The position numbers were made by a program, and so were the translations under genes. The notes below the pieces were generated by a model. The model was not told the DNA's origin. It searched no databases and worked only from the letters and a program-made list of their open reading frames with translations. Of a stretch of 49,556 bases of DNA, positions 21,908 through 24,068 are shown one piece after another (the stretch's first letter is position 1; every line of letters starts with the position of its first letter). The stretch comes from Candidatus Synechococcus spongiarum. GTDB taxonomy: Bacteria > Cyanobacteriota > Cyanobacteriia > PCC-6307 > Cyanobiaceae. Location of the stretch: positions 1 through 49,556 of the forward strand of contig NZ_FITM01000092.1 in NCBI RefSeq assembly GCF_900047545.1. The letters are read 5' to 3'.

Positions 21908-23413
<1,506 letters not shown>

Positions 23414-23423
23414 CCAAGGCAAC

Positions 23424-23448
23424 AAAAAAGCTCCCCTGTTGGGGAGCT
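23424..23448 (-). terminator. Intrinsic terminator
   Basis: AGCTCCCC and GGGGAGCT form an eight-base stem with a four-base loop. Read on the minus strand it is followed by six T, so it ends the small basic-protein gene. On the plus strand the same stem may also end the thiC transcript, without a U-run. Confidence 0.85.
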
Positions 23449-23483
23449 TCGGGCCATGGTCCATGGCGGAGGTCAACAGCGGA

Positions 23484-23603
23484 TCAGCGGAGGCAGACTG
23501 ACTTCTCGTGCAGATCAACCCGGCGACGGTAGGCCATTTCCTTGGCACGACGGGTGGCTTCTTGGCGATGCCGCTGCAGATAGTGAACGGTGATGATGGA
23601 CAT
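23484..23603 (-). CDS. Small basic protein of 39 residues
   Basis: A 39-residue frame, MSIITVHYLQRHRQEATRRA... ending SVCLR, rich in Arg and His and probably one helix. It is supported by a Shine-Dalgarno GGAGGTG just upstream of the ATG and a good intrinsic terminator 36 bases after the stop. I know no function. The charge suggests nucleic-acid or acidic-protein binding, but this is inference. It faces thiC convergently. Similar short arginine-rich proteins seem to occur in marine picocyanobacteria. Confidence 0.75.
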   Translation of the reverse strand: MSIITVHYLQRHRQEATRRAKEMAYRRRVDLHEKSVCLR

Positions 23604-23852
23604 GGGATGCACCTCCGGATTGTGTGGGACAGGGTGCGTTGCTTCGGGCCGAGGGGCCTTACTTCCACCTGAGCATCAGGTCAACGAGGAACAAATAATA
23701 GCAGTTGCTACCAAATTCCGGCAAGTGGGATGGCCTCTTCGTTAAGAAATGGGGCTTGTCTTGGGGTGATGGGCTGGTTTAGCGTTATGGCTTGCCTTTG
23801 CATCCCATGACTGGGCAGGCTGTAGGCAACAGTGACCGCCGTCTTCACCCTG

Positions 23853-24068
23853 ATGCACATTCCTCTAGCCTCTTCCAATCGCCGTTCTTCACACAACCTC
23901 GTTGCGCCTTCTCTGCGGGAACAAGGCTTGACCGTGGGGGAACTGGTGTTGATTGTGCTGGTCATTCTGGTTGCCGCGGGAGGCGCATGGCTCTTTCTGG
24001 GCAGCCAACAGCCAACCCCCTCCAACGAAACCACGGTCCAGCCCCCAGCTCTCAATCCCCAGCCCTAA
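23853..24068 (+). CDS. Small single-span membrane protein
   Basis: From the ATG at 23853 the frame codes for 71 residues; a GTG at 23832 would add seven. It has one hydrophobic helix (GELVLIVLVILVAAGGAWLFLG) near the middle and a Pro/Thr/Asn-rich tail. The N-terminal part looks soluble with basic residues. The layout recalls type IV pilin-like or small membrane anchors but lacks a pilin motif. It ends one base before the convergent recF stop. The upstream 249 bases (23604-23852) contain no gene I can support. Confidence 0.5.
   Translation: MHIPLASSNRRSSHNLVAPSLREQGLTVGELVLIVLVILVAAGGAWLFLGSQQPTPSNETTVQPPALNPQP

What the first reader, a model, noticed from the sequence alone, without database searches (positions are those of the whole stretch)
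23484..23603. Small arginine-rich gene with clear expression signals
A 39-residue basic protein has a strong ribosome site and a textbook terminator although it is far below usual gene-calling limits. Such strong signals for a tiny basic protein suggest a regulatory or ribosome/RNA-binding role.
Basis: partly seen in the sequence, partly recalled or inferred. Interest (0 to 1): 0.5.

Follow-up and report, generated by a model that had tools for sequence, protein, structure and literature searches.

The report
Glutamine-switched mini-protein gene in picocyanobacteria
A cyanobacterium from a group of sponge symbionts carries a tiny gene for a 39-residue basic protein that sits behind what looks like a glutamine-sensing RNA switch and a nitrogen-control promoter, so it may be a brake on nitrogen uptake that stands in for the glutamine synthetase inhibitors its lineage seems to lack.

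Summary
Between a promoter overlapped by an NtcA-type box (GTAN8TAC) and the start codon lies a type-1 glutamine riboswitch (RF01739, window 23688-23633). An iterated profile found 36 relatives of 37 aa in six other genera, making 46 of 400 family genomes. The box is exact in 45 of 46 upstream regions against 0.38 expected. A box-plus-aptamer model hits 33 of the 36, two of them training rows. In 39 of 43 leaders the Shine-Dalgarno site pairs with the aptamer's 3' end, 13.4 expected. So the protein should be made in nitrogen excess, as are the glutamine synthetase (GS) inactivating factors IF7/IF17. It shows no detectable homology to them, and no IF core was detected in the 46 carriers. Best reading: an unclassified mini-protein family acting as an IF-like brake, most likely on GS. 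The parts are shown; ligand binding, direction and target are not.

The parts
23719..23724 (-). -35-like hexamer TTGCCG (18-nt spacer to the -10)
   Evidence: counterpart with at least 4 of 6 matches in 10 of 10 genus loci but in only 1 of 35 others scored, L107 not scored
23695..23700 (-). -10-like hexamer TATTAT, overlapping the right arm of the NtcA-type box
   Evidence: TAN3T in the same place in 45 of 45 loci scored, and in L107 by eye
23698..23711 (-). NtcA-type box GTAGCAACTGCTAT (consensus GTAN8TAC; one base off here, exact in the other 45 loci)
   Evidence: sequence
23633..23688 (-). type-1 glutamine riboswitch aptamer (RF01739, 36.5 bits, cut-off 35)
   Evidence: box plus aptamer model R1 97.0 bits, but the window is in its training set
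23633..23637 (-). anti-Shine-Dalgarno GCACC at the 3' end of the aptamer, can pair with GGUGC at the ribosome site
23612..23616 (-). Shine-Dalgarno GGAGG
   Evidence: kept in 10 of 10 genus loci
23484..23603 (-). 39-aa basic protein gene, stop included
   Evidence: predicted single helix 3-38, mean pLDDT 81, pTM 0.43
23427..23450 (-). intrinsic terminator-like hairpin with T tail
   Evidence: 8 of 10 genus loci by eye

Best explanation
The locus is a monocistronic gene for a 37-39 aa Arg-rich, probably helical protein whose synthesis is gated twice by nitrogen status. (1) Transcription: NtcA with 2-oxoglutarate (nitrogen-poor cell) binds the GTAN8TAC box that overlaps the -10 and blocks the promoter. 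(2) Translation: without glutamine the 3' end of the aptamer pairs with the Shine-Dalgarno region; glutamine binding stabilises the aptamer, whose stem P1 abuts that pairing and shares 1-3 bases with it, and frees the ribosome site. The protein therefore appears when nitrogen is in excess. There it most likely binds and damps an enzyme of nitrogen assimilation, first of all glutamine synthetase, doing the job of IF7/IF17 without being their detectable homologue. Shown from sequence: the parts, their order and their conservation. Inferred: NtcA binding, repression, ligand response and its sign. Not shown: the target.
For: RF01739 at or above cut-off before the gene in 10 of 10 genus loci. Box-plus-aptamer model R1 found upstream in 33 of 36 relatives outside the genus, 31 of 34 without the two training rows. 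Over 400 family genomes R1 has 59 hits at E up to 0.001: all 44 hits that precede this gene score 35.4 bits or more (one, G185, is cut by the contig end after six codons); of the other 15 (26.9-35.0 bits), 13 precede DUF4278-like genes judged by eye and 2 neither. GTAN8TAC exact in 45 of 46 upstream regions, 0.38 expected. TAN3T overlaps it in 45 of 45 scored plus L107 by eye. SD paired with the aptamer 3' end in 39 of 43, 13.4 expected. Own terminator. Published parallel: gifA and gifB have NtcA sites at -30.5 and -7.5 that repress, and gifB has a glutamine riboswitch controlling IF17 (PMC6316151, passages and sections 9, 10). IF core not detected in the 46 carriers. DUF4278 also not detected in 17 of 19 g6 carriers. 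GlnA present in the own genome. The protein is small, Arg-rich and of high pI like the IF core.
Against: Profile comparison with the IF7/IF17 core finds no homology (probability 0.2%; a 37-column profile has little power). No expression, binding or enzyme data exist here. The window's own box departs by one base, and its aptamer is 1.5 bits above cut-off. RF01739 itself, run on 20 of the 36 outside loci, reaches its cut-off in 8, scores 28.8-34.4 bits in 8 and is not listed in 4. On the 12-row alignment stem P1 never varies, so covariation gives little independent support. The SD-blocking pairing shares only 1-3 bases with P1, so the switch mechanism is not settled; four related g6 leaders lack the pairing, and shuffled leaders also hide the SD fairly well (mean pairing 0.80 against 0.93). 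A -35-like hexamer is seen in the genus but in 1 of 35 others. Three relatives (L109, L123, L127) have no recognisable aptamer yet keep box and gene. Genus g1 also has a riboswitch-led DUF4278 gene, which could be the GS regulator there instead.
Confidence: 0.5

Rival explanations
1. Same regulation, different target: the protein binds PII, an enzyme of arginine or nitrogen storage, or a carbon enzyme under nitrogen excess, as PirA does with PII in Synechocystis.
For: Small proteins of nitrogen control with non-GS targets exist (PirA, PMC8092223, passages). In one locus read from each of six non-g1 genera the gene lies before class II fructose-bisphosphate aldolase, which leaves room for a carbon-side link. 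The review also notes glutamine aptamers before PII, GS and ammonium transporter genes in environmental sequences.
Against: The small proteins tied to a glutamine riboswitch in the review passages seen are IF17 and IF17-like DUF4278 proteins. In two loci read (L082, L090) a GC-rich hairpin with T-run separates the gene from fba (by eye). In g1 the gene is not next to fba.
Confidence: 0.3
2. The small ORF is a leader or decoy and the riboswitch transcript acts as a regulatory RNA.
For: Short transcript with hairpin terminator; conserved leader.
Against: pN/pS 0.22 in g1 and 0.42 in the 36 others, with third-position excess; ORF, start and stop kept in 46 genomes in two unrelated neighbourhoods; leader that can hide a ribosome site.
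Confidence: 0.05
3. One reading: a ribosome- or RNA-binding small basic protein.
For: High pI and Arg content.
Against: No convincing family match for any of the 46 in Pfam or NCBIfam; a glutamine riboswitch and NtcA-type site are not expected of a ribosomal protein; patchy distribution, 46 of 400 genomes of the family.
Confidence: 0.07
4. It is a truncated, fast-evolving true descendant of the IF7 core.
For: Same kind of regulation, Arg-rich sequence, MS start and an early AR/AK pair in non-g1 members.
Against: No profile similarity; the nearly invariant W, QGK, P and F of the second half of the IF core lie beyond the length of the new family.
Confidence: 0.08

Closest known systems
GS inactivating factors IF17/gifB and IF7/gifA of Synechocystis
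   Same: small, Arg-rich, basic; NtcA-type site inside the core promoter; [quoted passage not shown]
   Different: 37-39 aa instead of 65 and 149 (PMC7760959 passage); no detectable sequence homology; no DUF4278 part; binding to GS not tested
DUF4278 mini-proteins of picocyanobacteria such as PMM1846
   Same: riboswitch-controlled small proteins of picocyanobacteria with a suggested IF-like role; PMM1846 also has an NtcA motif (PMC6316151)
   Different: the new family has no DUF4278 match; the review ties the marine ones to type-2 aptamers; g1 genomes carry one gene of each sort
Type-1 glutamine riboswitch (glnA RNA, RF01739)
   Same: aptamer model met at or above cut-off in 10 of 10 genus loci
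   Different: coupled to an unclassified small-protein gene
PirA, PII-interacting small protein
   Same: small protein of nitrogen control
   Different: PirA is reported absent from marine picocyanobacteria (PMC8092223 passage); no similarity test was run here

Membership tests
Type-1 glutamine riboswitch RF01739 | covariance model score at or above the gathering cut-off | tested here: met
   36.5 bits against 35 for the window; 10 of 10 genus loci; 8 of 20 outside loci tested
Type-1 glutamine riboswitch RF01739 | binds L-glutamine and changes gene expression | not testable with these tools
   needs in-line probing and a reporter
IF7/IF17 GS inactivating factors | sequence similarity to the IF core | tested here: not met
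   hhalign probability 0.2%; IF profile best E 0.076 over 62 picocyanobacterial genomes
IF7/IF17 GS inactivating factors | three conserved Arg needed for GS binding | tested here: inconclusive
   the three invariant Arg of the first half of the IF core (spacing 13 and 7) have no conserved counterpart at that spacing by eye on the letters; the families do not align, so the test is weak
IF7/IF17 GS inactivating factors | NtcA site in the core promoter, repressing | tested here: inconclusive
   box form present, exact in 45 of 46, overlapping the -10; binding and sign not testable
IF7/IF17 GS inactivating factors | binds and inhibits GS | not testable with these tools
   no interaction assay available
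DUF4278 (PF14105) | Pfam match | tested here: not met
   no family at E up to 1 for the window protein; not among the matches of the 46 members
Ribosomal or RNA-binding small protein | match to a known ribosomal or RNA-binding family | tested here: not met
   Pfam and NCBIfam give no such match for the 46 members; PDB sequence search empty for the window protein

The most novel reading that the evidence does not exclude
Part of the picocyanobacterial lineage lost the IF7/IF17 inhibitors and replaced them with an unrelated 37-39 residue helical peptide, plugged into the same two-input control (NtcA-type site overlapping the -10, glutamine riboswitch hiding the ribosome site). It would be a protein brake on glutamine synthetase smaller than IF7 and a case of non-homologous replacement under conserved regulation.
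Probability: 0.42. Interest if true: 0.75.

Novelty: new variant of a known kind. Interest (0 to 1): 0.62.

Why it matters
A 2018 review heads a section with the statement that GS regulation in marine picocyanobacteria is unclear, and says that these lineages appear to lack full-length inactivating factors (PMC6316151). A conserved mini-gene behind a glutamine switch in 46 of 400 genomes of the family, among them 17 of 19 g6 carriers in which neither an IF core nor a DUF4278 gene was detected, gives a concrete candidate to test. It also shows that genes under 40 codons without a convincing Pfam or NCBIfam match can be found through their leader, and it supplies a profile (A5) and an RNA model (R1) for doing so.

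Tried and rejected
Homology with IF7/IF17 was tested by profile and not found. The first protein search over 60 relatives looked genus-specific; its four weak hits L012-L015 (E 0.09-0.54) were not taken further. The ten-protein profile gave E up to 1 in 246 of 400 genomes, nearly all at chance level; of nine weak hits read only L082 and L090 were taken as real, because box and riboswitch stood in front of them. Six of the 52 genomes have E of 0.008 or more and were left out of the 46. The better weak class hit, G487 (E 0.0016), has no start codon and is taken as chance; G473 (E 0.0076, inside a 788-aa frame) was not followed. Phage records and viral contigs gave no relative. PDB gave no sequence relative for the window protein or an IF7-like protein; for IF17 it gave one hit at E 0.045 that I take as chance. 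Single-member Pfam and NCBIfam matches at E 0.026-0.058 are taken as chance. The Rfam Phe_leader and sR7 matches are below cut-off. Covariation of the aptamer on 12 rows was uninformative. Among 30 IF loci one (L160, cut short and so read out of frame) was dropped and eight near-copies left out; 21 plus the IF7-like core of L064 made A6. The primary paper on the riboswitch (Klahn 2018) is not held; I used a review. Papers: passages and sections 9, 10 of PMC6316151; passages of PMC8092223 and PMC7760959; search listings only for the rest.

No description of this family appears in those listings (one search showed 40 of 58, one search showed 20 of 39). Since Klahn 2018 could not be read, an earlier mention cannot be excluded. 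Many genomes are incomplete, so absences are soft (47 of the 62 are at least 90% complete). No similarity test against PirA was run.

Full report
What was claimed and what is there. All three are present on the minus strand: ORF 23603-23484, GGAGG at 23616-23612 (sequence), and a 10-pair hairpin with T tail at 23450-23427. The terminator scan alone is not above chance in this region (3 found, 3.7 expected). What makes the gene certain is conservation. 10 of 10 genomes of the genus in the 60-genome search carry it. The ORF has no indel, identity to the window is 79-92%, pN/pS is 0.22 and median dN/dS 0.18 over 45 pairs. Nine records with names and the same gene were found; three are called Candidatus Synechococcus spongiarum, the others Synechococcus sp. 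(3), Prochlorococcaceae (2) and Cyanobacteria bacterium (1). The window's own record is unnamed; that it belongs to this sponge-symbiont group is inferred from the shared genus.

The leader. cmscan finds a type-1 glutamine riboswitch (RF01739) at 23688-23633 with 36.5 bits against a cut-off of 35, and at 36-50 bits in all 10 genus loci. Each of these 10 genomes has two RF01739 hits at E up to 0.01. The second (27.8-37.4 bits, above cut-off in 2 of 10) lies before a protein of about 68 aa; the window genome's copy matches DUF4278, and DUF4278 was found in all 10. So the genus has two riboswitch-led small genes.

The promoter. Just before the aptamer lies GTAGCAACTGCTAC, a palindrome of the NtcA form GTAN8TAC, whose last three bases begin a -10-like TAN3T. 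In the genus a -35-like hexamer stands 18 nt upstream of the -10. In the window the aptamer begins 7 nt after the -10, so transcription should start at about its 5' edge, and the box would be centred near -16.5 (inference). In Synechocystis the repressing NtcA sites of gifA and gifB also lie on the core promoter, at -30.5 and -7.5 (PMC6316151 section 10). The window's own copy ends in TAT instead of TAC and is the only one of 46 that is not exact.

Relatives outside the genus. A profile of the ten proteins gave, among many chance hits, two weak family hits (L082, L090) with box, riboswitch, SD and a 37-aa ORF. With those two added, the profile finds 46 of 400 family genomes at E of 1.3e-4 or better: g1 10, g6 19, g53 7, g70 4, g82 2, g9 2, g68 2. 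All 36 outside g1 read as 37 aa of the form M[ST]ITTA[RK]Q[LM].RQAE.ARR.A[KR]Q.....Q.LR[KR]Q.LID with some departures. Among 145 class genomes only the window's own and two weak hits appeared, of which the better is not a gene with a start codon. Phage records and viral contigs gave none.

Association of gene and leader. A model of box plus aptamer (R1, 12 training rows) hits directly upstream in 33 of the 36, 31 of 34 without the two training rows. The three without an aptamer (L109, L123, L127) still have the box 73-77 nt before the start codon's end. RF01739 itself, run on 20 of the 36, reaches its cut-off in 8, scores 28.8-34.4 bits in 8 more and is not listed in L107, L109, L123 and L126. 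Over 400 family genomes R1 has 59 hits. 44 precede this gene, all at 35.4 bits or more, one of them (G185) cut by the contig end after six codons; 13 (27.6-35.0 bits) precede DUF4278-like genes judged by eye; 2 (27.6 and 26.9 bits) precede neither. GTAN8TAC occurs in 45 of 46 upstream regions of 250 nt; shuffles predict 0.38. The neighbourhood differs: thiC converges on the gene in the window, while one locus read in each of g6, g53, g70, g82, g9 and g68 lies between a Gfo/Idh-type oxidoreductase and class II fructose-bisphosphate aldolase (names from reading the sequences, not from a family search). Gene and leader thus keep together although the place changed.

How it should switch. In the minimum-energy fold of the aptamer 3' part to the start codon, at least 4 of the SD bases pair with the first 16 nt (the P1 3' strand and tail) in 39 of 43 leaders, against 13.4 when the leader part is shuffled. 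In g1 the pair is GCACC with GGUGC; in most others it is GCC-A-UCC with GGAGGC. The four exceptions are related g6 leaders in which tail (CATT or CAAT) and SD region (GAGGTC) both differ. Mean SD pairing is 0.93 against 0.80 for shuffles, so part of the hiding comes from base composition. The full window leader folds with P1 open and the SD closed. P1 and the blocking helix share one base in g1 and one to three elsewhere (read), so competition is plausible but small, and the conserved aptamer tail may matter more. The direction, translation at high glutamine, is taken from the published gifB and type-2 cases (PMC6316151). Ligand binding is not shown.

What the protein does. AlphaFold2 gives one helix, residues 3-38, mean pLDDT 81, pTM 0.43, from ten close sequences. 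None of the 46 members has a convincing Pfam or NCBIfam match, and the window protein has no PDB sequence relative. It shares with IF7/IF17 the small size, Arg richness and basic charge and the regulatory layout, but profile comparison with 22 IF cores gives 0.2% probability. The IF core was found in 69 of 116 class genomes but not detected in any of 62 picocyanobacterial genomes, the 46 carriers included (12 matches at E up to 1, best 0.076). DUF4278 was not detected in 17 of 19 g6 carriers but is present in all 10 of g1. Glutamine synthetase is present in the window's genome. A protein made in nitrogen excess, in cells without IFs, is most simply a substitute brake on GS.

Limits. No transcript, peptide, ligand or interaction data are available here. 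The aptamer's P1 never varies in the 12-row alignment, so its identity rests on the Rfam model and not on covariation. The E-values of R1 are rough, and searches over more than 40 genomes use stricter filters. Genomes outside g1 are unnamed, and many are incomplete. The primary riboswitch paper (Klahn 2018) could not be read.

Noticed in passing
window 21913-22011, + strand: TPP riboswitch (66.6 bits) in front of thiC, which converges on the small gene.
   Followed up: no
L046 (G000:C168:600-2400), riboswitch at contig 1614-1688, minus: Second glutamine riboswitch of the same genome (33.9 bits, below cut-off), before a 68-aa DUF4278 protein.
   Followed up: partly
L056-L062, about 50 nt upstream of the aptamer: DUF4278-type leaders of seven other picocyanobacterial genomes share a palindrome GTTCAC(C/T)(A/C)TGAAC, read by eye; it is not of the form GTAN8TAC and its regulator is unknown.
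   Followed up: no
L109, L123, L127: Relatives that keep the GTAN8TAC box and the 37-aa gene but have no recognisable aptamer: natural tests of what the riboswitch adds.
   Followed up: partly
window 23832-24068, + strand: 78-aa ORF with one hydrophobic stretch, no family at its cut-off.
   Followed up: no
L065 (G046): Riboswitch-led DUF4278 protein of about 94 aa whose C-terminus is a short Arg- and Gln-rich stretch instead of a full IF core.
   Followed up: no
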